64,000 nt of DNA from contig CM026422.1 of NCBI GenBank assembly GCA_014871385.1, positions 18,131,437 through 18,195,436 of the forward strand, written 5' to 3'. The stretch comes from Ceratodon purpureus (lineage: Eukaryota; Streptophyta; Bryopsida; Pseudoditrichales; Ditrichaceae). Position numbers and translations under genes: made by a program. Positions 1 through 13,450 of the stretch are shown here, in pieces. How positions within the stretch are numbered: position 1 is the stretch's first letter; every line of letters begins with the position of its first letter. Under the pieces are notes generated by a model. The model had not been told where the DNA came from and did not search any database. It worked only from the letters and a program-made list of their open reading frames with translations.

Positions 1-37
1 TACAACAATGTCTTCATCATCAGGTGCTTCTTCACGG

Positions 38-3000
38 CTATCTTCTGATGAGTAATATCCTTCTGAGGATTTCGACCCCATCGTCATCTCCATCTCCCCC
101 CTGATTAGGCACATACTCCTCCACCGTGGAATGAATGTTGCGCAATTCGTGGTCAACTGTACCATCCACCACTGTGGTCACAATTCTTTTGATCTTCCGT
201 CTTTTGGTCTTATCGGTGATTCCGTCCACATTCATTACGGGTAATCTACGTTTACCCACAGCCACAGGTACAGACGGGGTAGTTCCAACAGTATATCCTG
301 AAAAAAAAAGGGCGAACGTTTGTTGGACCTTTCCGTGACCGTATCACTCCATGACGCGTCGTAGAAGGTCCAGCTGGTAGACTTCGTCCAGAAGAAGTGA
401 GTGGAATGCTTGTATTCGGTGTTGGAGTTAATGAAACCATGCCCAGTAGAAGTGTTTGAACGAGGGTGGGGGGGGTCGACCCAACCCTGCAAGTACTGCT
501 CCGATTGAAGGTGTACTCTGGGGCAGGGGTGTTTGAAACAATCGGCCAATAGGAATTTCATCTTCTTGTCCATTTCTGACTGTCTCTGATTGTTCATTTC
601 TTGGAGGGCTTTCATCCAAACCTCCAGACCTGATTGTTTCCTCCTCAACATTTACTGGCAGAGTGGCCTGGAGTTGTTCAACTTCTTCTCCTCCCTCAAC
701 GTCTTCTGGAATTGGAATTTGCTCTCCCATGTTGTTACCCCCTTCTTCATTGTCATTGTTCGAAACGCTACGAACGGGGTAAATGTCATCATTATTGCCA
801 CCATCGTCGCTTTGATGCTGAGTCATTTCGACTTCAAATTCATCGTCAATATCATCGTCTGCCCGATCGTATGCGACCTCGCCTCTAGCTTGTATTCATT
901 GACAACGTGGTGAGGCGAAGTAGCTGCCTCTTCATCAAATCCTGCCCAGTCAAAAACTCCATTCGGCTGGTTAACGGGTTCAGTGCGTGGCATGTCACCA
1001 TCACCATTGTCCACGGGTAACTCTGGATACTCATCATCCATAGTAGCAGGAGTGTAATGAACTCCACCGTCATCACCATCGCCTTCATTAACTTCAAGTC
1101 CGTCGTGGAATCCTTCATCTCCATCATCATCACATACGTCTTCATCGTACATGGCTGGCACTTCTTCATCCGAGTCTTCGGAGAACGGTTGGTTCTCGTA
1201 CCAAAGAACAGGATCCGCTCCACGTCGTTCTCGAAGGAGCTTACTGTTCGTGTAAATGTACACCAAGTCCTCTGCCTTCTTCATCACGGCCAATCGGTTG
1301 CGAACCTTACTGTGAACAAAGGAATACATGCTCCAATTTCGCTCACATGATGATGCCGAGCATGTTAACGAAAGGATGCGCTTTGCTATCAACGGTAACG
1401 CATCGCCCCCAACCCGCTGCCACCATTGATGAGGTAGCATCTTAGTCTGTCGAATGTTTGGGGCCTCCAAAGGGCTGAATGGACCGGTGCGTTCCTCAAA
1501 CTGTGTTAGCTCGAACAACACAGTATCGTGGTCCAGTTTAAGGCACTCACTCAAATGAATTAGCACTTGCAGGAGTGCACGCTTCGCAGCACTGTTAGTC
1601 AATAGCTCGTGGCTCTCCGGGAAAATGTAGGGATTCAAAATGGCGCCTGCGTAATGGAGATCTGTCAACATCATCTTCCATCTCTTCGTAAAATGTTTCT
1701 CAAAGCGATCTGCTATAGCGGGGTCTAGGAAAAAAGGATCACCCCGTAGACGGAACACATGCTTCTTCAAATTATTCATGGCCAACCATGCCCTCCCCAT
1801 TGCCGGTGTTTGTCCATCAAATGTCTTCAAGGTCACAACAGCCGGCTTCATAACATGCACAAGATTCTCACAACGTAACCAAAATGTCTCATCGAGAATG
1901 GTACTCCGTACTTGACATGCTAAGGTGTGAGCTCGATACCCGTTTGACCGATTGAATAAAGTACCCACATATTCGTCCCATTTCGGACTGGCTACCACCT
2001 GGATTAGTGCCTCCCTCAGTTCAAGCAATCGAACAATCATCAAGTACGAGCATCCAATCTTGTCTCCGCTGGTAACAACAGAGACAACTTCGGGCTGAAT
2101 TGGCGAAACAAAGCCATGGTGACATGACGGCGACGTATAAAATTTGGTATGCGTTTTGCCAAGGCAATCAGCTCTTTGAAGGTTGCTTCCTTCCCCCAAT
2201 CTTCTAGTAAGAGGTCCATGATGTGAGCTGCACAACCTTGCTTGTAAATGTGAGGATAAGCTTCAACCACCTGGTCCATGGCTCCCAACATCGCACTAGC
2301 ATTGTCGGAGCAAATCTGTACCACATTCTGCGGTCCAACTTCTTTGATGTACTCTTTCAATTTCCCAGCTATGTATGCCTTTGATTTCTTGTACCCCGTT
2401 GTATCAATGGAACCTAGGAATATATCTCCTGCTGGACACACAAGCATGACATTCATCAACGGCCGATGAACAACGTTGTCCCATCCATCCGAGCAGATAG
2501 TTGCCCCGTACAAGCTAATACACTGCTTCGTTTTCTCCTCTATTCTCAACTTGAGAAGCTGCTTTGTTGGCTGGATGTGCTTGGTTCGCATTGCGTTGTA
2601 TGCTGGTGGACGGTACACAAAACCCGCTTTCGATGTTGCCTCCACAGCAGCGATAAAAGATGGATGTCTAACCACATTGAAAGGCACATTCGCTTCATAA
2701 AAATAGGACGCCCATTTCTCATCCAATTCATTGCGCATCCCAATCTGATAGGCCTCGGTAAAACTTTGTTGCCGCATAGATCTTGGTGTACATGAATCGC
2801 CTTTGCTTATAGGCGGAGTTGACTGAGACGGTTTGAACTTGGAAAATCCTCTCCTCTTGGACCTCCTCCGTTCTCTGAGGCACTTCCGTAGATTGCTCAG
2901 CAGGCATAGACTGGCTAGAACATGGTGCCAAGTGTGCCAAGTGTGCCTCGCCATCACCACCATCAGTGCCGTATATCTCCGCATGTGTCATTCTTTTTGG

Positions 3001-3217
3001 TATTACATTACCACAATTGGCAAAGCGCCTAAATACGGCGGCGGGGGCCTTGGTACAATGACTCTTGCTTGAACCTTCACCCCATCCATAGTGCTTGAAA
3101 GCTCTTTGTCGTTTATAACGAAAGGTGAAATTGCACCACACACATTTCACATGGTCCTTATCAATGAACGTCCACTACGGAGCCCACTCAGCCGTCGACT
3201 GACGCTGTTGACCTGCC
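38..3217 (-). pseudogene. hAT-family transposase gene, BED finger + DUF659 + dimerisation domain, degraded
   Basis: A transposase of the hAT superfamily (cut-and-paste DNA transposition) is readable on the minus strand in pieces. The likely start is the ATG at 3217. A BED-type zinc finger follows (CVWCNFTF, then the H and C of SKSHC, about 3150-3040). Then comes the DUF659/RNase-H-like core (about 2830-2060), with catalytic aspartates in CSDGWD and CSDNAS and the hAT motif GCAAH. The C-terminal dimerisation domain contains SSCERNWS (about 1330). A long acidic Asp/Glu/Gly-rich tail follows toward position 38. The frame is broken: a TAG at 3175-3177 just after the start, a frame change near 2840, another near 2060, and at least two more in the acidic tail near 890 and 450. 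It is therefore an inactive copy. Terminal inverted repeats and target duplications were not found; the element may run past the window start. Family assignment is strong, exact boundaries are not. Confidence 0.85.
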
Positions 3218-3415
3218 ATTCTCCGTGTCTCTGAAAAAGTACAATGATCTCCTATCTGCAAGTGTTAGTATGACACATGTGAGAAAAAATGGTATGTGTA
3301 GACATCAACCACAGGCCAATGTGATGCACATAGTCTCAAGCAAGGAGCCCACAAGGAGTTCCGGGACTAGAGGCCATGATTTCAAATGATATTGGGCTTG
3401 GGCTAAGTTGGTGGC

Positions 3416-3422
3416 ATTTATA
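3416..3422 (-). promoter_or_regulatory. TATA box of the hAT transposase gene
   Basis: On the minus strand the sequence reads CGAGTATAAATGCC. It lies directly between the GC-rich array (3430-3786) and the transposase start at 3217, about 200 bp upstream of the ATG. The placement matches the kinase and RING genes. Transcription start is not shown by sequence alone. Confidence 0.55.
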
Positions 3423-3429
3423 CTCGTGA

Positions 3430-3786
3430 GGGGGGGCCCGAGTTTCTCCAGGCGGGGGGGCGCGAGCGTGTGCAGGGGGCGCGAGTTTCTCCAGGTGGGG
3501 GGGCGCGAGCTTCTCTTTCCAGGGGGGGGCGCGAGCTTTTCCCAGGGGGGGGCGCGAGCTTCTCCAGGGGGGGCGCGAGCTTCTCCAGGGGGGCGCGAGC
3601 TTCTCCAAGGGGGGGGGGGCGCGAGCTTCTCCGAGGGGGGGGGGGCGCGAGCTTCTCCAAGGGGGGGGGCGCAACCTACTGCAAAGGGGGGCGCGAGCTT
3701 CTCAGAGGGGGGGCGCGAGCTTCTGGAAGGGGGGGGGGCGCGAGCTTCCAGAGGGGGGGGGGCGCGAGCGGGTTCAGGGGGGAGGC
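3430..3786 (-). repeat. GC-rich tandem array 1 (CTCGCGCCCCCC type)
   Basis: About 15 degenerate units of 18-26 bp. On the minus strand each reads roughly GAGAAGCTCGCGCCCCCC, with the C-run varying between about 6 and 11. The last unit carries the TGAACC variant typical of arrays 2 and 4. It lies upstream of the hAT gene and downstream of the kinase gene. Units lack stop codons, so long Arg-Ala-Pro-Pro ORFs appear in several frames; these are not taken as genes. G-run length is prone to slippage and assembly error. Confidence 0.95.
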
Positions 3787-4013
3787 ACCCTTGTACGAGG
3801 GGCAGTCCCGGTGAATGGGCCATACAGTTTTTTCATTTTTTTTTAAAAACAATTTTTCATTCCATTACAAAACCAACAATACCATTTCATGTTCCACCAA
3901 GGCATGTATATGCCGAAAAAACGATTTATTAAAATATTCGAAATGTGCAAACAAGGCTACATAGGCAATCAAAATGTTCCAAACGTAATTCACTATGGAA
4001 CTACAATGTGTAT

Positions 4014-5582
4014 CTAAAACAACCATTGGGAGCTTGGAAGTTGTAAGGGGGGGCTCATCAAATCATTCACAACTTTTGCAAGTGAAAGCCTCTTTGAAGG
4101 ATCTTCGTTAAGCAAGCCATCCAACTTTGATGAGAATACAATCTTTGAGATTGAATCCTTGAAGAGTTCTGGGCAATCTTCTTCTCTCCATATCTTCTTT
4201 GCCAAATGGCCTACCGAAAATGCATCAGATAGCGTCGTACATGGATGCATCCTCTTCATGCGCTCCAAATTCCGTTCCTCATCATCTTTTTTGCCATATA
4301 AAAAGAACAACTCCGGTGCAACTCCTACCCTCCTCTCCTTTACTTGTACAAGTTCATCGGGGTCCATCACACCATAAGGGGAGGCCTTGTTCTTAATGAC
4401 TCTGCTTGCCACACCCCAATCGCACACACCAATATATACTTTATTCTTGTCATGAGGTGGAAAGTGGAGTAGAATGTTGGATGGCGTTAAGTCGTTGTGG
4501 AGGATTTCAGCCTTATGGACTATGTCCATAACGTAGATGAGACTCCACGCCAACATTCCCCGGTTCTTTCGGTAGGCAACAATTCTTTGGCACTCTTCCA
4601 TGGGCATATCCCTCGACTTCAAAATTTCTTTGTAATCTGTTGCCTCGGATGCCTTCTCATTTATCTTGAGGAAGTTGCGGAGGCAATCTCCATTCCACCA
4701 CAGGGTATAAGCTTCCATGGTCTTAGCGTGAATGGCCCAAAATTTTATCACACCCGGATGCTCTACGGGGTTAACCGTGGCCTCAATCGCCCGTTCCTCT
4801 CGCTTCTTCACTTCGGTTTTAGCCTTGGAAAGTTTTCCCGCAAATTCTATGTGAATTGGAATTTTCTTCATATTGGCTATTCGCACTTTTTGCACTTTGC
4901 CATACCCCCCCTCGGCATTGAAGCCAGATAATGGCACAACCTTGGCCGTAACCGGAATCCATATCAATGCACCATACATGTGTGCTTCCAATGCTGAGTT
5001 CAATGCTTGCTCATTCCAAGGCATAATCTTTGTTTTCCCCTTAGAACATCTCTGACATGCCTCCTGAACCGTTGTCAGTTTTTGAATAAACACTTTGTCT
5101 TGGTTGCTCCATTCTTCGCCTTGTGGTTTCTTGACATGTGATTCAAACACATGAATGACATTTGTCGTAGCACTACTCACTTGTTGTGTCAACCACTTCG
5201 GGCTGTGAAAATACTTCGTCATGCAATCCATGTACATCTCTGATCCTTCCAATGCGCTCCAAAATTCCCTTTCCAAATCACGTTGGAGGTTGTAGATACC
5301 ATCCTCTCCGTGATCAAGGTACATTGCCTTCAACATTCGTATGGTACGGGCCTTGTAGTACTCGACGGCCACCTTCCTGATGAAATGCGTATACTCCAAT
5401 GGTGGATAACCGTCATCCTTCTCGTGCGCTGGAATACTCTTCTTCTTTTTACCCTTCGAGCTAGATGAAGGAGTAGAACCACTAGAACCATGAGGTGTTA
5501 CGCAACTCATAGGGTCCACCGCATCTGGAGCATCCAAGTCCACATACATAGGCCGCTTGCCGGAGCCTTGTCTAGAAGACAT
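4014..5582 (-). CDS. Intronless protein-kinase-like protein with novel N-terminal half (522 aa)
   Basis: The C-terminal 300 residues form a protein-kinase fold with its landmarks in order: glycine-rich loop GGYGKV (225-230), candidate ATP-lysine in AGK (248-250), catalytic loop HNDLTPSN (362-369, in place of HRDLKxxN; Asp364 and Asn369 kept), metal-binding DWG (388-390, in place of DFG) and APE (422-424). The C-lobe has DAFSVG and a final SKRLSL, like the usual RPS segment. Catalytic residues look intact, so phosphotransfer is plausible, but the substrate is unknown. Residues 1-45 are low complexity with a basic KGKKKK stretch; 60-215 match no domain I recognise. There is no signal peptide or membrane segment. 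The ORF is single-exon and undamaged, unlike the intron-bearing host genes. It lies head-to-head with the RING gene across a satellite and has a GC array plus TATA box upstream. It could be a host gene or cargo of a mobile element. Confidence 0.85.
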   Translation of the reverse strand: MSSRQGSGKRPMYVDLDAPDAVDPMSCVTPHGSSGSTPSSSSKGKKKKSIPAHEKDDGYPPLEYTHFIRKVAVEYYKARTIRMLKAMYLDHGEDGIYNLQRDLEREFWSALEGSEMYMDCMTKYFHSPKWLTQQVSSATTNVIHVFESHVKKPQGEEWSNQDKVFIQKLTTVQEACQRCSKGKTKIMPWNEQALNSALEAHMYGALIWIPVTAKVVPLSGFNAEGGYGKVQKVRIANMKKIPIHIEFAGKLSKAKTEVKKREERAIEATVNPVEHPGVIKFWAIHAKTMEAYTLWWNGDCLRNFLKINEKASEATDYKEILKSRDMPMEECQRIVAYRKNRGMLAWSLIYVMDIVHKAEILHNDLTPSNILLHFPPHDKNKVYIGVCDWGVASRVIKNKASPYGVMDPDELVQVKERRVGVAPELFFLYGKKDDEERNLERMKRMHPCTTLSDAFSVGHLAKKIWREEDCPELFKDSISKIVFSSKLDGLLNEDPSKRLSLAKVVNDLMSPPLQLPSSQWLF

Positions 5583-5740
5583 CGCAAAGTAAATCCCTGA
5601 AAAAAAAAATCAACAACTTCCCCCCCCCCGCCCCAATGAAGACTTCCCACATAAGCAGTTCCAAGCAAGGCGTGTTTTCACACGTCAGGACAAGGAGCCG
5701 CAGTGGGAAGGAGTGAGGGGGGCGAGAGCTTCTCCCCACC

Positions 5741-5747
5741 TTATATA
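5741..5747 (-). promoter_or_regulatory. TATA box of the kinase-like gene
   Basis: The minus strand reads GACTATATAAGG, 159 bp upstream of the kinase ATG at 5582 and directly next to array 2. The 11-base core GACTATATAAG is identical to the TATA region of the RING gene (8756-8766). One GAGAAGCTCTCGCCCCCC unit lies just downstream of this TATA box on the same strand. Confidence 0.65.
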
Positions 5748-5757
5748 GTCCCCACGG

Positions 5758-6042
5758 ACCCGCTCGCGCCCCCCCCCCTGAACCCGCTCGCGCCCCCCTG
5801 TACCCGCTCGCGCCCCCCCTATACCCGTTCGCCGCCCCCCCCCGTACCCGCTCGCGCCCCCCCCCTGAACCCGCTCGCGCCCCCCTGTACCCGCTCGCGC
5901 CCCCCCTATACCCGTTCGCGCCCCCCCCGTACCCGCTCGCGCCCCCCTACCGCTCGCGCCCCTGTACCCGCTCGCGCCCGTACCCGTCCGCGCCCCCCCC
6001 CCCACCCGTTCGCGCCCCCTCGGACACGCTCGCGCCCCCCCC
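5758..6042 (+). repeat. GC-rich tandem array 2 (CTCGCGCCCCCC type)
   Basis: About 14 units of 18-26 bp read on the plus strand as CCCGCTCGCGCCCCCCTGAA with TGTAC and TATAC variants. A higher-order period of about 90 bp (TGAAC, TGTAC, TATAC units in order) is present twice. It sits immediately upstream of the kinase TATA box; relative to kinase transcription the array is G-rich on the sense strand, the opposite of the arrays at the hAT and RING promoters. Confidence 0.95.
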
Positions 6043-6206
6043 CTTCCATTTGTTTTCGAACTCATTTTTTATTTTTTATTTCTCTTCTGGAAATAGTGAA
6101 ATCTCTACACTACTTTCTAAGAGAAAAAAATAAAATAAAACAAATTAAAAAATACAAAGTATTGGGATTTTATACTTGCACAACCTCTCATGCAGCTCTA
6201 GCCTCT

Positions 6207-8288
6207 CTTCCACTCCATGCTGTTATTTAATTTTAAAACGTCTATCTCCCAAACCAATTGCGTCGATCCCTTCTTTATGATTCTTTATAATATGTTAGAG
6301 CATTGTAGGATCCGTATGTACAATGCATTATATTTTTTATTTTATTAAACTGTAATCCTACGTATTTCCACACCATGCTATTCTTTTTATTTTATTCCCT
6401 TTATCTCTTCCACTCCATGCTATTGATTTAATTTTATTCCGTTTATCTGCCAAACCAATTGCATCGAGCCCTTCTTTATGATTTTTTTTTTTTTTTTATT
6501 ATATGTTAGAGCATTGTAGGATCCTTATGTACAATGCATTATATTTTTTATTTTTTTAAACTCTAATCGAACTCTCTTCCACACCATGCTATTCTTTTTA
6601 TTTTATTCCCTTTATCTCTTCCACTCCATGCTATTGATTTAATTTTATTCCGTTTATATGCCAAACCAATTGCATCGAGCCCTTCTTTATGATTCTTTAT
6701 ATTTTTAATTATATGTTAGAGCATTGTAGGATCCATATGTTCAATGCATTATATTTTTTATTTTTTTAAACTCTAATCGAACTCTCTTCCACACCATGCT
6801 ATTCTTTTTATTTTATTCCCTTTATCTCTTCCACTCCATGCTATTGATTTAATTTTATTCCGTTTATATGCCAAACCAATTGCATCGAGCCCTTCTTTAT
6901 GATTCTTTATATTTTTAATTATATGTTAGAGCATTGTAGGATCCATATGTTCAATGCATTATATTTTTTATTTTTTTAAACTCTAATCGAACTCTCTTCC
7001 ACACCATGCTATTCTTTTTATTTTATTCCCTTTATCTCTTCCACTCCATGCTATTGATTTAATTTTATTCCGTTTATATGCCAAACCAATTGCATCGAGC
7101 CCTTCTTTATGATTCTTTATATTTTTAATTATATGTTAGAGCATTGTAGGATCCATATGTTCAATGCATTATATTTTTTATTTTTTTAAACTCTAATCGA
7201 ACTCTCTTCCACACCATGCTATTCTTTTTATTTTATTCCCTTTATCTCTTCCACTCCATGCTATTGATTTAATTTTATTCCGTTTATATGCCAAACCAAT
7301 TGCATCGAGCCCTTCTTTATGATTCTTTATATTTTTAATTATATGTTAGAGCATTGTAGGATCCATATGTTCAATGCATTATATTTTTTATTTTTTTAAA
7401 CTCTAATCGAACTCTCTTCCACACCATGCTATTCTTTTTATTTTATTCCCTTTATCTCTTCCACTCCATGCTATTGATTTAATTTTATTCCGTTTATATG
7501 CCAAACCAATTGCATCGAGCCCTTCTTTATGATTCTTTATATTTTTAATTATATGTTAGAGCATTGTAGGATCCATATGTTCAATGCATTATATTTTTTA
7601 TTTTTTTAAACTCTAATCGAACTCTCTTCCACACCATGCTATTCTTTTTATTTTATTCCCTTTATCTCTTCCACTCCATGCTATTGATTTAATTTTATTC
7701 CGTTTATATGCCAAACCAATTGCATCGAGCCCTTCTTTATGATTCTTTATATTTTTAATTATATGTTAGAGCATTGTAGGATCCATATGTTCAATGCATT
7801 ATATTTTTTATTTTTTTAAACTCTAATCGAACTCTCTTCCACACCATGCTATTCTTTTTATTTTATTCCCTTTATCTCTTCCACTCCATGCTATTGATTT
7901 AATTTTATTCCGTTTATATGCCAAACCAATTGCATCGAGCCCTTCTTTATGATTCTTTATATTTTTAATTATATGTTAGAGCATTGTAGGATCCATATGT
8001 TCAATGCATTATATTTTTTATTTTTTTAAACTCTAATCGAACTCTCTTCCACACCATGCTATTCTTTTTATTTTATTCCCTTTATCTCTTCCACTCCATG
8101 CTATTGATTTAATTTTATTCCGTTTATATGCCAAACCAATTGCATCGAGCCCTTCTTTATGATTCTTTATATTTTTAATTATATGTTAGAGCATTGTAGG
8201 ATCCATATGTTCAATGCATTATATTTTTTATTTTTTTAAACTCTAATCGAACTCTCTTCCACACCATGCTATTCTTTTTATTTTATTC
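6207..8288. repeat. Satellite of 210-bp units, about 9.9 copies
   Basis: An AT-rich unit containing CCAAACCAATTGCATCGAG and GCATTGTAGGATCC repeats with an exact 210-bp period at anchors 6661, 6871, 7081, 7291, 7501, 7711, 7921 and 8131. Units from about 6600 on are identical base for base; the first two or three (6207-6600) are diverged and differ slightly in length. The array fills the intergenic space between the divergent kinase and RING genes. Identity implies very recent amplification, or homogenisation. Copy number should be treated as approximate because such arrays collapse in assemblies. Confidence 0.98.
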
Positions 8289-8669
8289 TAATATTAATAC
8301 ACTAATTTTCTTGTAGTCAACATTATATTATTCATGGTGCATTAGATCAGTATTCCGTTATGGGATAACTCAGTTTCTAACCACCATGACATTTATTCAT
8401 CTTGATAACTTCTTTCATCCCATGTTATTCATCCCTTTTTATCCCGAGTCCCTTATTATAGTCATGATTGTTTTTCTATAATTTGATTTCTCATCCCCAA
8501 ATTATTCAAATCAGTATTCCTTATTTTCATATCCCTTTTTAATTTTTAATTTTTAATTTTATTTTAGAGAGAAATGGTGAAAAAATCCATTGCATTTGTT
8601 TTTATTATTGTCTTCCAACCTTCTTCAATGGTACTCCTAAGGAAATGAGAGTTTGTTTTAAGGGGGGGA
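8289..8669. other. AT-rich spacer without gene
   Basis: Low-complexity AT-rich DNA between the satellite and GC array 3. No ORF or structured motif that I can support. Confidence 0.7.
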
Positions 8670-8721
8670 CCCTCTCGCGCCCCCCCTTGATCCCGCTCGC
8701 GCCCCCCCGACCCCGCTCGCG

Positions 8722-8755
<34 letters not shown>
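8670..8755 (+). repeat. GC-rich tandem array 3 with long C-run
   Basis: Three units of the CCCGCTCGCGCCCCCC type end in an uninterrupted C-run of roughly 35 bases (about 8720-8754). The array abuts the TATA box of the RING gene and is C-rich on that gene's sense strand. The run length is unreliable in any assembly. Confidence 0.9.
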
Positions 8756-8756
<1 letters not shown>

Positions 8757-8758
8757 AC

Positions 8759-8765
8759 TATATAA
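8759..8765 (+). promoter_or_regulatory. TATA box of the RING-finger gene
   Basis: GACTATATAAG directly follows the C-run of array 3. It shares 11 identical bases with the kinase TATA region. The ATG lies 336 bp downstream, so the 5' leader would be about 300 nt and contain the direct repeat at 8809-8990. Confidence 0.65.
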
Positions 8766-8808
8766 GTGAAGGGGGCGCCCTCCCCCCCCCACTTTTTTTA
8801 GCTCCACC

Positions 8809-8990
8809 TTGGCACTCAGGCCTTGAACTACCTCACGGTGGCTTATTGCTGAGTACTTGGGTGGGGTCTACAGTATTTTGACAACGCCACGTACCAGCTT
8901 TCAGCCTTATTTTGTACGCTCATCCGGGAATTCGGGCCCTGAACTACCTCATGGTGGCTTATTGCTGAATACTTGGGTGGGCCACAAAGT
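8809..8990 (+). repeat. Direct repeat (about 60 bp x2) in the RING gene leader
   Basis: Two copies of a segment containing TTATTGCTGAGTACTTGGG lie at about 8814-8878 and 8931-8990, roughly 117 bp apart with a handful of differences. They fall between the TATA box and the ATG, so they would be transcribed as 5' leader. No coding role is seen. Confidence 0.85.
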
Positions 8991-9100
8991 ATAGTTACAA
9001 TACCATAATCAACCACAGAGGAAAATTTTAAAATCAATTGGGGGAAGTTTTGAGGAGTTGGTGTGTTTTTTAACACAGAAAACTTTACCAGTACACCACG

Positions 9101-11482
9101 ATGGAGGGAAACCCAGATCCGGCGGAGGAAAGGCCACTCACCAAGGCCGAAAAGAAGAAAATCAGAGATCGTGAACGGAAGCGTGGTGGCAAGAAGATGA
9201 AGAAGCGGCTTCATGTGCTGAACAACCCCACAAAGTTGGCATTTAGAGGTTGGCAAGATGAGCCGGAACCGTGGAAATATTCCACATGCGAGGAATTCAT
9301 TGAGTGGTGCCACATCACAAAAATATTTCCACATGATCGGCACAGAAAACACAGGATCTCAGACAAGGCTAACCTCTATTATTGCTTGAATGCGGAGTTT
9401 GTTGAACGTTCTATACAAGTTTACCAGCATCTATACAAGCAACGATGTGTTGAACGCAATGAAGTACCATTGTTCATTTGCAGAATGGTGTATGCTGAGG
9501 TGGTGCTTCACAAAGTGGTGGATTGGTCCACCATCAAATCCACGCCGAGTGTTAGGGCGCCGACAGAGCGTGACATTCCCAAACAAAGGAAATACGCAGA
9601 TGGTGGCCTGGGGAAAAAAATGAAGGAAAAAACACAAGTACGGGAGCCTGATACAGCAGAGTCTGAACCAGATTCTGATTCCGATGGTCGTCGTGGAGAA
9701 CGTCCACCACGTAGAATTGTAGCACCAGCAAATATGGCTGTAGAGCCTCCAATGAACCATCCAGCGGACGTCATAGAACCTCATGACGATGCGAACACCG
9801 TCTTCGTGGAAAACGATCCAAATACGGCAGCTAATTTGGACGTGGTCGGAACTGAACCTACGATGGTTCTTGGCATGCCGGTTCTAGTTAGAAATGACCA
9901 GTCTAACCAGACCGAGGAGGTCGGGGAGTTACAATTACAGCTAATAGAAAAGGATGGCTTCATTGCAGAGTTACAAGAGACCATCCGAAAACTACGATTG
10001 GAATCAGCAGCAAAAGATGCAGTAATATCAGATTTGCGCAATCAATTGCAAGAACGAGAAAGACCTCAGTCTTCTCAAGCCAATGATATACCTGTAGTTC
10101 AAGATCCAATGTTGGTGGATGAATCTTATATCAACAATACGGTTGATGTTGCAACGGCCGGTGTGTTGGAGAATATTTCCACTCCAGCAAAACGACGACG
10201 AGTTGGAGTGATATTGCCTCCACCAGCCCCATACCCGCGACCCTATGTGGACATCGATGGACCATTAAGTCAAGATTCCTTGTCATTTCCACCCAATGCT
10301 CTAACGGGAGAAGTGGAGACATTGAAGAGAGCCAATAATGATTTGCGGCTCCTTGTTTCTAAGTTTGCTAAAGCATACTACGAGTGGAAAGTGGCAACCA
10401 TTCTCAGCGTTGATCGCGGTTGCCAAATTGCATTAGAGTTCAAGAAGATCGACGAATCGTACTTGCAACACAACAGACGAAGGAATTTTGGCCTCACTTC
10501 ATGGACTAACGCAGATGATATGTATCCAGATACCATGCCAAAGCAAGAATCGAATCCTGAACTCATAGATTGGGCCAAGTTGAATTTCGATGTGAAGAAC
10601 ACAACTTCGTGCCATGATCTTCAAATGAAGGAAGGAGTTAATAGCAGAAAGCTTTGGCCAAATCCTCAACCGTGGGTGATGGATGGTTCAAAAGAATGCC
10701 CTGTGTGTATAAATACATTTGGTCCTGAGGGTGGATGGGCAGTTGGATCATGTACCCACATGTTCCATCCTATGTGTTTAATTAACATTTTTTTGGTAAG
10801 GAGATTTTGCCCGGTGTGCAAATCCCCGTTCCATGAACGCTTGTACGAGGTTTTTGGACTCACTCCATACATGCCACCAAGCCATGAGAGAAATCCCGAA
10901 AACACACCAGGTGAACAGTACCGCAACATGTGGGGGGAAGATTTGATTTGGAGTTGGCGGGCCCAGACTCACTCGGTCTTCAAGAGCAATGTAAGTGACG
11001 AGTTGGGGTGGGAGGATGACCCCAATCAGATTGTGAGGGTGGCAAAGAAGATAATTGGATCAAAGAAGGAGGACCAAGGGAAACGAAATTTCTTCTATCA
11101 GACTTTGAATGGATACTGGGATCCGAAGCATAGGAAGTTCCAACTTGGTAATCACCCAAAAGGCCTCATATGGAACAAGGACGGGGAATTGGTTACAGAC
11201 CTCGAAGGTCAATTCATGTCTTTGACCGCCCGTGATGCAGTCCAAATGTCTCTTTCGGAGTGGAAGTTAATTTTCAAACATGAGGCTGTTGACTTTCTTC
11301 TGGAGGAACACTCTCCACAGACATTGCGTACATTGAGAGAATTGAGGAACTCGCAAATTTTGCGTTCTCTCAGTGAAAGTGATGGCCCATTCCGGCGAAC
11401 ACGGACGAGAGCCAGGCGCAGCTTGACGCTGGACGATGGAGCGGGACCAAGTGGCACAGCGGGAGTAGATGCAGATGAATAG
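9101..11482 (+). CDS. Intronless RING-H2 / coiled-coil nuclear-type protein (793 aa)
   Basis: A single undamaged ORF starting ATGGAGGG. The N-terminus is strongly basic (residues 14-40, Lys/Arg-rich). Residues about 40-150 form an unrecognised globular region rich in Trp, Cys and Tyr. Residues 185-260 are acidic and disordered. A heptad-like coiled coil covers about 265-325, followed by a candidate nuclear localisation signal, AKRRRVG. A RING-H2 finger occupies about 533-573: CPVC, then CTHMFH and a following C, then CPVC. Residues 600-760 are an unrecognised C-terminal domain with WGEDLIWSWR and GYWDP. RING fingers of this kind usually act as E3 ubiquitin ligases; target and pathway are unknown. 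The leader carries a direct repeat, and a GC array plus TATA box lie upstream. It is head-to-head with the kinase gene. Lack of introns in so long a gene suggests mobile or retro-derived origin, but this is inference. Confidence 0.85.
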   Translation: MEGNPDPAEERPLTKAEKKKIRDRERKRGGKKMKKRLHVLNNPTKLAFRGWQDEPEPWKYSTCEEFIEWCHITKIFPHDRHRKHRISDKANLYYCLNAEFVERSIQVYQHLYKQRCVERNEVPLFICRMVYAEVVLHKVVDWSTIKSTPSVRAPTERDIPKQRKYADGGLGKKMKEKTQVREPDTAESEPDSDSDGRRGERPPRRIVAPANMAVEPPMNHPADVIEPHDDANTVFVENDPNTAANLDVVGTEPTMVLGMPVLVRNDQSNQTEEVGELQLQLIEKDGFIAELQETIRKLRLESAAKDAVISDLRNQLQERERPQSSQANDIPVVQDPMLVDESYINNTVDVATAGVLENISTPAKRRRVGVILPPPAPYPRPYVDIDGPLSQDSLSFPPNALTGEVETLKRANNDLRLLVSKFAKAYYEWKVATILSVDRGCQIALEFKKIDESYLQHNRRRNFGLTSWTNADDMYPDTMPKQESNPELIDWAKLNFDVKNTTSCHDLQMKEGVNSRKLWPNPQPWVMDGSKECPVCINTFGPEGGWAVGSCTHMFHPMCLINIFLVRRFCPVCKSPFHERLYEVFGLTPYMPPSHERNPENTPGEQYRNMWGEDLIWSWRAQTHSVFKSNVSDELGWEDDPNQIVRVAKKIIGSKKEDQGKRNFFYQTLNGYWDPKHRKFQLGNHPKGLIWNKDGELVTDLEGQFMSLTARDAVQMSLSEWKLIFKHEAVDFLLEEHSPQTLRTLRELRNSQILRSLSESDGPFRRTRTRARRSLTLDDGAGPSGTAGVDADE

Positions 11483-11734
11483 GAATAGTTACAACTTAGT
11501 ACTAAGTGACTAGTTTTCATATACTACAGTTTTTGTAATGTTTTGGTTTGAATTGGTAATGAAATGCTTTTACTTTCATAAATGTATACAACTTTGCAAA
11601 GTCCATGTATTTTGGCTCACGAGTATCTCATTTTTTCTATGCTGAATTTACACTTTTGTCATTGCGCTTAGCCCCAATATATTATTCTGATGAAAATGTT
11701 AGGTTTTTTTGCATTGTCAAAAATTTACTATCTA

Positions 11735-11930
11735 CCCCGCTCGCGCCCCCCCCTGAACCCGCTCGCGCCCATTCCCCCTGAACCCGCTCGCGCCCCCCCT
11801 TGAACCCGCTCGCGCCCCCCCCCTGAACCCGCTCGCGCCCCCCCTGAACCCGCTCGCGCCCCCCCCCCCCTGAACCCGCTCGCGCCCCCCTGAACCCGCT
11901 CGCGCCCCCCCCCTGTACCCGCTCTCGCCC
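11735..11930 (+). repeat. GC-rich tandem array 4 (CTCGCGCCCCCC type)
   Basis: About nine units reading CCCGCTCGCGCCCCCCTGAA on the plus strand, 250 bp beyond the RING stop codon. It is in inverted orientation relative to array 1, so arrays 1 and 4 bracket the kinase plus RING segment. No TATA box was found next to this array on either strand. Confidence 0.93.
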
Positions 11931-12575
11931 CCTACACATGCTGGCACCCCTTTTGCATATGTGGAATTCCCCGTCATCGTTCGTTGTCCATGTCATCAAT
12001 ATGTTTCCCCTATAGGTAAGTTGTAAAAAAAAAAAATTAACTTAGTAATTTTCCTCCTCCCCTCAATGTCCGATTGTGTCCGGGGACCGACCGGTCCGTC
12101 CGTCCGTCCGTCCGTCTATGTCCGGAAATTTTGCCCATGTCCGTCCGAATAGACAACCCTGACCTCAGGTCAGTGCTCATTCCCCAGTGTCTAGCAGTGC
12201 TGGAGCAAGTGTGCTCGGGGCCGAGCACACTTGGGCACTCCCATCACATGTTTGTTTTTCATCTCGAACCGATGAATGTTGGGAGAGACGAATTCTGTCC
12301 GCGATAGTCCCAATCCAACTGTGCTTGGCCCCGAGCAGTCTCATTACAAAGGTTCTCGGTGACTGGACTCTCTATATTTTTTAAGGACATAGACATTCTA
12401 GGTGAGGCATATGGACCAGCACATTCGGGCATGCAAAGATTCTAGGACTGTTCTAAATCACAACATATAGAAGGAAATCATAGTCATTTGAAATGTCATT
12501 ATTGCCTCTTCGTAGGTCATCATAGCCATATCGTTGGTCATCATAGGAAGTCCTAAGATTAGCAGAGTCGCATTA
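11931..12575. other. Intergenic; TCCG microsatellite and palindrome
   Basis: No gene is seen. A short GTCC/TCCG tetranucleotide repeat lies at about 12090-12117. A palindrome with arms CAAGTGTGCTCGG lies at about 12205-12233. Its CCGAGCA core resembles the conserved core of the following 65-bp array. Confidence 0.6.
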
Positions 12576-13450
12576 GGCACTTGTAGGTATGTGACCTCGG
12601 TAGTGTAACCAGGGGGAAGGGCCCGAGCAGACTTGCAGCAGGCACTTGAATGAATGTGACCTCGGTAGTGTAACCAGCTGGAAGGGCCCGAGCAGACTCG
12701 CAGCAGGCATATGGAGGTATGTGATCTCGGTAGTGTAACCAGGGGGAAGGGCCCGAGCAGACTCGCAGCAGGCACTTGGAGGTATGTGATCTCGGTAGTG
12801 TAACCAGGGGGAAGGGCCCGAGCAGACTCGCAGCAGGCACTTGAAGGAATATGATCTCGCTAGTGTAACCAGGGGAAGGGCCCGAGCAGACTTGCAGCAG
12901 GCACTTGAAGGTATGTGATCTCGCTAGTGTAACCAAATGGAAGGGCCCGAGCAGACTCGCGGCTGGCAGTTCAAGGTATGTGATCTCCGTAGTGTAACCA
13001 GCTGGAAGGGCCTAAGCAGACTCGCAGCTGGCACTTGGAGGTATGTGATCTCGGTAGTGTAACCAGGTGGATGGGCCCTAGCAGACTCTCTGCAAGCTCT
13101 AATGAATCTAGAATTCAGTACTGTTACCAGGAGGAAGGGCCCGAGCAGACTGGCAGCAGGCACTAGAAGGTATGTGATCTCGGTAGTATTACGTGGGGGA
13201 AGGGCCCGAGCAGACTCGCAGCAGGCACTAGAATGTATGTGATCTCGGTAGTGTAACCAGCTGGAAGGGCCCGAGTAGAGTCGCAGCAGGCAGTTGAAGG
13301 TATGTGATCTCGGGAGTGTAACCTGGTGGAAGGGCCTGAGCAGACTCCCAGCAGGCTCACCTGAATATTGAATTCAGTAATGTTACCAGTGGGATGGGCC
13401 CGAGCAGACTCGCAGCAGGCACTTGAAAGTACTAGATTTCGGTAGTGTAA
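12576..13450. repeat. 65-bp tandem array, 13 copies, upstream of the methyltransferase-like gene
   Basis: Units contain GGGCCCGAGCAGACTCGCAG and GTATGTGATCTCGGTAG. The AGCAGACT anchor recurs at 12626, 12691, 12756, 12821, 12885, 12950, 13015, 13080, 13145, 13209, 13274, 13339 and 13402, a period of 63-65 bp. Two units (near 13100 and 13370) share a different middle segment with AATTCAGTA and TGTTACCAG, so at least two subtypes alternate. The array ends about 200 bp before the first supported ATG of the next gene. Isolated copies of the core occur at about 15430, 18490 and 20320. Minus-strand ORFs through it are by-products of the repeat. Confidence 0.95.

What the first reader, a model, noticed from the sequence alone, without database searches (positions are those of the whole stretch)
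3416..8766. Three unrelated genes share one promoter layout: CTCGCGCCCCCC array plus TATA box
Seen: the hAT transposase, kinase-like and RING genes each have an array of the same 18-26 bp GC-rich unit directly upstream of a TATA box. The kinase and RING TATA regions share GACTATATAAG exactly. Inference: the arrays are promoter elements of a common regulatory module, so the genes may be co-expressed. Arrays with long C/G runs could also form G-quadruplex or i-motif structures.
Basis: partly seen in the sequence, partly recalled or inferred. Interest (0 to 1): 0.75.

Follow-up and report, generated by a model that had tools for sequence, protein, structure and literature searches.

The report
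Three-gene hAT transposon with shared arrays
The three genes are not independent plant genes: they are the transposase, kinase and RING genes of one 11-14 kb jumping gene of the hAT type that is repeated many times in this genome, and the same short GC-rich repeat sits in front of all three genes and near both ends of the element.

Summary
In detail: arrays with the core GCTCGCGCCCC lie directly upstream of a TATA box for the hAT transposase (TATA 3416-3422, -), kinase (5740-5750, -) and RING gene (8756-8766, +). The interpretation changes. All three genes and all arrays belong to one hAT transposon with its right end at 12161. Copies of 11-14 kb end in CAGGGTTGT...CCCTG and duplicate 8 bp of target: 15 of 20 tested pairs perfect, 17 of 20 at least 7/8, 0 of 380 mismatched controls at 7 or more. 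An intact copy encodes a 1094-aa transposase, a 526-aa kinase and a 792-aa RING protein. Two more arrays, one in the window (11736-11932) and one at the left end, are subterminal and have no TATA box. The five arrays share the core but not its flanks, and point toward the nearer end. RING and transposase frames show purifying selection among copies; the kinase test is inconclusive. Most likely the core binds a factor that controls the three promoters together and also acts near the ends (transposase binding or VANC-like anti-silencing). That function is inferred. I rate it a new variant of a known kind.

The parts
1..12161 (.). Right-hand part of one hAT transposon copy; right terminus ...GACAACCCTG at 12161; the left terminus lies left of the window in a withheld stretch
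   Evidence: By eye, all 30 RING loci fetched lose similarity at this same point; window 1 to about 2875 is 99% identical to L062 and L063, which run on to a left end
823..2984 (-). hAT transposase gene, broken in this copy into ORFs in different frames; intact copies exist elsewhere
   Evidence: PF05699 and PF04937; open 1109-codon frame in copies B and C; 42 places scored genome-wide, 38 without stop
3416..3422 (-). TATA box (TATAAAT) of the transposase gene
   Evidence: its counterpart in copy B is 205 bp before the ATG
3430..3782 (-). Array A2, transposase promoter, units on the - strand
4014..5582 (-). Kinase gene, 522 aa here (526 aa in copy B), with GGYGKV, FAGK, HND...N and DWG motifs (recognised from memory)
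   Evidence: PF00069 E 7e-11; 83 places scored, nearly all over residues 1-516, 81 without stop; motif places in copy B
5740..5750 (-). TATA box of the kinase gene, GACTATATAAG
5758..6041 (+). Array A3, kinase promoter, units on the + strand (opposite to the gene)
6204..8288 (.). 10 copies of a 210-bp AT-rich tandem repeat between the divergent kinase and RING promoters
   Evidence: the A3-A4 spacer is shorter in copy B
8670..8755 (+). Array A4, RING promoter, only 3 units plus a C34 run in this copy
8756..8766 (+). TATA box of the RING gene, GACTATATAAG
   Evidence: exact TATATAAG in 26 of 30 copies, 341-348 bp before the ATG; of the other four, one has a base change, one reads N and two lack it
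9101..11482 (+). RING-H2 gene, 793 aa
   Evidence: PF13639; solved RING structures match residues 525-583; 57 places scored, 49 without stop; purifying selection
11736..11932 (+). Array A5, right subterminal, no TATA box or gene after it
12142..12161 (.). Right terminal sequence ending CCCTG; CAGGGTTGT (9 bp) is the perfect inverted repeat with the left end in copy B
12162..12169 (.). Flanking 8 bp ACCTCAGG, probable target-site duplication; the same 8 bp precede the left end at C2:18092755

Best explanation
Shown: the feature is one hAT-superfamily DNA transposon (52 of 69 paired copies are 11-14 kb) that carries three genes (transposase, kinase, RING) and, in copy B, five arrays of one core motif: A1 near the left end, A2, A3 and A4 in the three promoters, A5 near the right end. 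Inferred: the core GCTCGCGCCCC is the binding site of one protein. Binding next to the TATA boxes controls the three genes together; the same binding near the ends either helps the transposase assemble the ends or keeps the element free of silencing. The kinase and RING protein are helpers of the element, for example by modifying or degrading host silencing factors or the transposase. My confidence is about 0.97 for the transposon identity, 0.85 that the RING gene is maintained as part of it, 0.5 that the arrays are a shared protein-binding site working at promoters and ends, and 0.3 for any particular role of the kinase and RING proteins.
For: Same right end in 30 of 30 loci by eye; 213 right ends and 332 left ends with up to 2 mismatches, reversed controls 0; 69 left-right pairs among the first 100 listed of each, 52 of them 11-14 kb; 8-bp target duplications in 15 of 20, at least 7/8 in 17 of 20, 0 of 380 control pairs. 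Transposase 1094 aa with DUF659 and Dimer_Tnp_hAT. 16 of 38 no-stop transposase places also have a no-stop kinase and RING nearby, counting only scored copies. Selection: RING, 30 copies, replacement/silent ratio 0.57 of neutral expectation (0 of 5000 simulations as low), 0.36 for variants shared by 2 or more copies (P 0.0004); transposase, 4 copies, 0.32 (0 of 5000). Five arrays share the core with different flanks, each in one orientation, all pointing to the nearer end. RING TATA box and TATA-ATG distance kept in 26 of 30 copies. VANC21 binds a motif that lies in same-orientation tandem arrays in noncoding regions of VANDAL21 (PMC5735166, passages); hAT transposases bind subterminal repeats (PMC4890040, passages; PMC3260210, passages).
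Against: No binding, expression or methylation data. A second repeat, CCGTCC/GGACGG, lies within 65 bp of both ends of copy B and is a better-placed candidate for the transposase subterminal repeat, which would leave the GC arrays without a role in transposition. GC-rich arrays with long C runs (longest run upstream of RING 12 to 75 bases in 29 readable copies) can expand by slippage without function. Two of 29 readable RING copies have lost the TATA box. The kinase shows no clear purifying selection (9 copies, ratio 0.68, P 0.06). The orientation pattern of 5 arrays could be chance. RING copies differ by only 1% on average, so conserved promoters may only reflect youth.
Confidence: 0.6

Rival explanations
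1. Arrays are pure promoter elements of the transposon, bound by a host transcription factor; the two terminal arrays are leftovers with no role.
For: A2, A3 and A4 lie immediately upstream of a TATA box; array+TATA recurs at 148 and 142 rows; the CCGTCC repeat could serve the ends instead.
Against: Two of five arrays have no TATA box or gene after them, yet A5 is the most regular array of copy B. The unit is in opposite orientation at the kinase promoter.
Confidence: 0.25
2. Arrays are chiefly subterminal transposase-binding repeats, as in Ac or Tgf2, that have spread inward and now also repress or activate the internal promoters through the transposase.
For: Subterminal repeats are listed as a hAT feature (PMC4890040, passages); every array points to the nearer end; the transposase has a Cys/His-rich N-terminal stretch from residue 26, read as a zinc finger by eye.
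Against: In copy B the first exact cores lie about 230-250 bp from the ends, outside the terminal 200 bp required in Ac (PMC3260210, passage); the CCGTCC repeats lie closer.
Confidence: 0.3
3. Arrays have no sequence-specific role: GC-rich minisatellites that grew by slippage in a young element, possibly affecting DNA structure or recombination only.
For: Unit number and C-run length vary widely among copies; G-quadruplex motifs are present, above shuffles clearly only in A5.
Against: Between arrays the core is shared while the flanks differ; arrays sit at five corresponding places with the genes and ends.
Confidence: 0.15
4. Three host genes that independently acquired the same promoter array (first reader's module).
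For: Three different protein families share array plus TATA.
Against: The three genes travel together between element ends with 8-bp duplications.
Confidence: 0.01

Closest known systems
hAT superfamily (Ac/Ds of maize, Tol2/Tgf2)
   Same: CAGGG...CCCTG ends, short inverted repeats, 8-bp target duplications, hAT dimerisation domain, repeats near both ends
   Different: Ac is 4.6 kb with a single transcript for an 807-aa transposase (PMC3260210, passages); this element is mostly 11-14 kb, its transposase is 1094 aa, and it carries two more genes and the same motif in all three promoters
VANDAL/VANC anti-silencing system of Arabidopsis (Mutator-like)
   Same: Multi-gene DNA transposon; short motif in dense same-orientation tandem arrays in noncoding regions, including upstream of VANA21; arrays gained and lost among copies (PMC5735166, passages)
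   Different: Different transposase superfamily and motif; no VANC-like protein was looked for or recognised here; demethylation untested
MuDR-type MULEs with a second ORF
   Same: Autonomous plant DNA transposon with an additional gene of its own (PMC6446971, passage)
   Different: MULE transposase, not hAT; the extra genes here are a kinase and a RING protein
Gene-capturing (Pack-type) plant transposons (recalled)
   Same: Host-like protein domains inside a DNA transposon
   Different: Copies carry an intact transposase and whole reading frames, RING under selection, rather than gene fragments; the source of the genes is unknown

Membership tests
hAT superfamily | 8-bp target-site duplication | tested here: met
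   15 of 20 perfect, 17 of 20 at least 7/8, 0 of 380 controls at 7 or more
hAT superfamily | Short terminal inverted repeats | tested here: met
   9 bp CAGGGTTGT perfect in copy B
hAT superfamily | Transposase with hAT dimerisation domain | tested here: met
   PF05699 E 1.4e-6 and PF04937 E 7.5e-33 on the 1094-aa copy
hAT superfamily | Transposase of about 600-800 aa (as listed in PMC4890040) | tested here: inconclusive
   1094 aa; the two Pfam domains span residues 205-657 and a long further tail follows. I treat the size as typical, not defining
hAT superfamily | Catalytic D, D, E and CxxH motifs | tested here: inconclusive
   TICSDGW from 240, QICSDNA from 301, CAAHIMDLL from 329 and SSCERNWS from 623 are present; matching them to catalytic residues is recalled, not aligned to a structure
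hAT superfamily | Subterminal repeats bound by the transposase | not testable with these tools
   Two candidate repeats near both ends; binding needs an assay
VANDAL/VANC anti-silencing | MULE transposase | tested here: not met
   Transposase is hAT
VANDAL/VANC anti-silencing | Dense same-orientation motif arrays in noncoding regions, largely confined to the element | tested here: met
   Five arrays in copy B; 71 of 91 listed RING-type array+TATA sites at element spacing; confinement of the other arrays was not tested
VANDAL/VANC anti-silencing | Element-encoded protein that binds the motif and removes methylation | not testable with these tools
   No such data
Pack-type gene capture | Internal fragments of identifiable host genes | not tested
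   Genome searches scored only the nearest copies, so no host parent could be sought

The most novel reading that the evidence does not exclude
A moss hAT transposon has evolved its own control system: one array motif marks all three promoters and both ends, an element-encoded protein reads it, and the kinase and RING ligase are dedicated anti-silencing or transposition-control factors - a VANC-like strategy arisen independently in the hAT superfamily, with post-translational enzymes as helpers.
Probability: 0.25. Interest if true: 0.8.

Novelty: new variant of a known kind. Interest (0 to 1): 0.6.

Why it matters
hAT elements are described as carrying one transposase gene (PMC4890040, PMC3260210, passages). 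A young, many-copy hAT element that keeps a RING gene under selection and an open kinase frame, under a shared array-TATA promoter design, makes it testable whether DNA transposons can carry post-translational enzymes as helpers against host silencing. It also warns that annotation of this genome may count many transposon genes as host kinases and RING proteins and read them as a 'co-regulated module'.

Tried and rejected
Rejected: three independent host genes (element ends and target duplications). No sign of a viral origin as far as tested: scans of viral contigs with the RING and kinase proteins (six short peptide patterns each) gave no relative. G-quadruplex as main explanation: motifs present, but against dinucleotide shuffles only A5 is clearly above (5 of 200), A3 weakly (17 of 200), A2 and A4 not; not excluded as a side effect. 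Rfam and tRNA scans of the window were empty. PDB sequence search gave RING-domain matches for the RING protein and only weak matches for the kinase. Single-sequence structure predictions were poor (mean pLDDT 33.7 and 35.8) and were not used for fold searches. L001 and L021 are a related repeat with a 74% similar kinase-promoter array and no kinase match; not followed further. Literature: ten searches (of these 58, 65 and 93 sought analogues rather than the element) listed no paper that I recognised as describing a hAT element with kinase and RING genes; I saw listings and abstract beginnings in one open-access library, so this is not proof of absence. PMC13317346, a review of gene capture by plant transposons, has no occurrence of 'hAT' or 'kinase' as whole words in its main text.

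Sampling limits: the genome searches score only the best candidates (57 of 1705, 83 of 1404, 42 of 1544), so copy counts are lower bounds and the share of intact copies is biased upward. The 30 RING copies are the 30 best-scoring of 57, which biases the selection test toward conservation, although the lower-ranked 15 of them give P 0.001. The wrong-frame controls of that test are not all flat: P(replacement as low) is 0.38 and 0.975 for the two other sense frames and 0.59, 0.002 and 0.997 for the antisense frames; I read the 0.002 and the two high values as echoes of the silent third positions. Of the 9 kinase copies, 6 came from the low-identity end of the list, which biases that test the other way. 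Two of the 4 transposase copies come from the low end of their list.
Full report
WHAT IS THERE. In the window, arrays of a GC-rich unit lie at 3430-3782, 5758-6041 and 8670-8755, far above chance (36 matches against 0.15 expected), and each stops a few bases from a TATA box: TATAAAT at 3416-3422 (-) for the transposase, GACTATATAAG at 5740-5750 (-) for the kinase and the same 11 bases at 8756-8766 (+) for the RING gene. A fourth array at 11736-11932 has no TATA box or gene behind it.

ONE ELEMENT. The window lies in a 362-Mb genome of 151 contigs, at C2:18131437-18195436. The size, and one 110.5-Mb contig (C6), recall the moss Ceratodon purpureus with its large sex chromosome; this is from memory and no tool named the organism. 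The exact unit CCCGCTCGCGCCCCCC occurs 2619 times in the genome, reversed control 0. The RING protein has 57 scored copies at 98-99% identity besides the query itself at 100%, the kinase 83 at 96-99%, the transposase 42 at 99-100%; all are lower bounds. In the 30 RING loci fetched, the similarity runs past the right-hand array and, by eye, stops at the same base in all 30, after ...CCGTCCGAATAGACAACCCTG (one copy with a base change in it). Two further loci show the left end, CAGGGTTGTTCATGGGACAAAAGGACC. With up to 2 mismatches there are 332 left ends and 213 right ends, controls 0. Pairing the first 100 listed of each gives 69 pairs, 52 of 11-14 kb. For the first 20 of these 52, 15 have identical 8-bp flanks and 17 agree in at least 7 of 8; none of 380 mismatched combinations reaches 7. 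This is the signature of a hAT transposon.

ANATOMY. Copy B (C1:1819937-1832359, 12423 bp, flanks GCTCGAGC) reads, left to right: end; CCGTCC repeats; array A1 (232-512); transposase gene on the - strand, 1094 aa; array A2 (4355-4735); kinase gene on the - strand, 526 aa; array A3 (6725-6916); AT-rich spacer; array A4 (8752-9000); RING gene on the + strand, 792 aa; array A5 (12008-12171); CCGTCC repeats; end (array limits by exact core). TATA-to-ATG distances in B are 205 bp (transposase) and 163 bp (kinase); 26 RING copies have 341-348 bp. In the window copy the transposase is broken into ORFs in different frames; intact copies exist elsewhere. Of 38 no-stop transposase places, 35 have a no-stop kinase nearby and 16 also a no-stop RING gene, counting only scored copies.

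THE ARRAYS. In copy B, 60 units with up to one mismatch in the core fall in the five arrays (13, 17, 9, 12 and 9). The core GCTCGCGCCCC is shared by all arrays; the bases before it are array-specific (for example CTGAACCC in A5, GGAGAA in A2). Arrays homogenise internally, so a core held in common by five separate arrays argues for a constraint on the core (inference). All exact cores of an array point one way, and all five arrays point toward the nearer end; only two of three promoter arrays have the unit in the direction of transcription. The longest C run upstream of the RING gene ranges from 12 to 75 bases in 29 readable copies, and the unit number from 3 (window) to 15. TATATAAG is found exactly in 26 of 30 copies; L060 has GACTGTATAAG, L039 reads N there, and L047 and L056 lack the box: the C run passes straight into the leader. 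Four of the window arrays were tested for G-quadruplex motifs against shuffles; only A5 is clearly above.

Array plus GACTATATAAG in RING orientation: 148 rows; in kinase orientation: 142 rows; reversed controls 0. The transposase promoter was not searched this way. Of the 100 rows listed for RING, 91 are distinct TATA sites, and 71 of these lie at element spacing from a perfectly matching left or right end. The other 20 include two known RING copies (C2:23506819 and C2:23517064; compare) and a diverged-looking group on C6. So the association with TATA boxes holds, but because the layout is copied with the element.

SELECTION. Among 30 RING copies, variants are 105 replacement, 71 silent and 4 stop, against 123.6, 48.0 and 8.4 expected from the same mutations placed at random in the same base and CpG context (0 of 5000 simulations as low in replacement plus stop); for variants shared by at least two copies the ratio is 0.36 (P 0.0004), for single-copy variants 0.68 (P 0.015). 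Control frames: P 0.38 and 0.975 (other sense frames), 0.59, 0.002 and 0.997 (antisense); they are not all flat, which I attribute to silent third positions showing through. Four transposase copies give 0.32 (0 of 5000); nine kinase copies give 0.68 with P 0.06, inconclusive. Replacement variants per site in RING are 0.060 and silent ones 0.138; three noncoding stretches have 0.07, 0.08 and 0.18, so noncoding is not uniformly faster than replacement.

HOW IT MOST LIKELY WORKS. Shown: one autonomous-looking hAT element with three genes. Inferred: the core motif is a protein-binding site used at the promoters and near the ends. Two models compete. In the first, the transposase binds it, as hAT transposases bind subterminal repeats (PMC4890040 and PMC3260210, passages), and so also controls its own and the other genes. 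In the second, an element protein binds it to prevent silencing, as VANC proteins do at same-orientation tandem motif arrays in VANDAL21 (PMC5735166, passages). The CCGTCC repeats within 65 bp of both ends are a better-placed transposase site, which favours a regulatory or anti-silencing role of the GC arrays. Kinase and RING proteins would then act on the transposase or on host silencing factors; this is a guess.

NOVELTY. hAT membership is firm on target duplications, ends and transposase domains. The additional kinase and RING genes and the shared arrays make it a variant that ten literature searches did not turn up (listed under tried and rejected). I rate it a new variant of a known kind.

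Noticed in passing
window 12162-12169 and C2:18092755: The 8 bp right of the window's element equal the 8 bp left of another element end 51 kb away on the same strand; that element (to C2:18104387, 11.6 kb) has its own transposase with one stop and kinase- and RING-type array+TATA sites, and its right flank differs. The two may have moved as one composite unit, or the region was rearranged; the stretch just left of the window is withheld.
   Followed up: partly
C6 (e.g. C6:25582381, C6:95663536): A group of array+GACTATATAAG sites with diverged C-run sequence and no perfectly matching element end at element spacing, perhaps an older subfamily.
   Followed up: no
L001, L021: Two 98% identical places with a 74% similar copy of the kinase promoter array and leader but no kinase match: a relic or non-autonomous relative.
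   Followed up: partly
C1:2493285-2498946 (L022): A 5.7-kb pair of ends whose right part keeps the RING 3' half and array A5; perhaps an internal-deletion derivative.
   Followed up: partly
window 6204-8288: Ten 98% identical 210-bp repeats between the divergent kinase and RING promoters.
   Followed up: no
P0002 residues 11-40 and 275-317: The RING protein has a strongly basic N-terminal stretch and predicted long helices at 15-40 and 275-317 in a low-confidence model; could be a nuclear signal or a DNA-binding region.
   Followed up: no
window 12561-13450: A 65-bp tandem repeat (13.7 copies) just outside the element.
   Followed up: no
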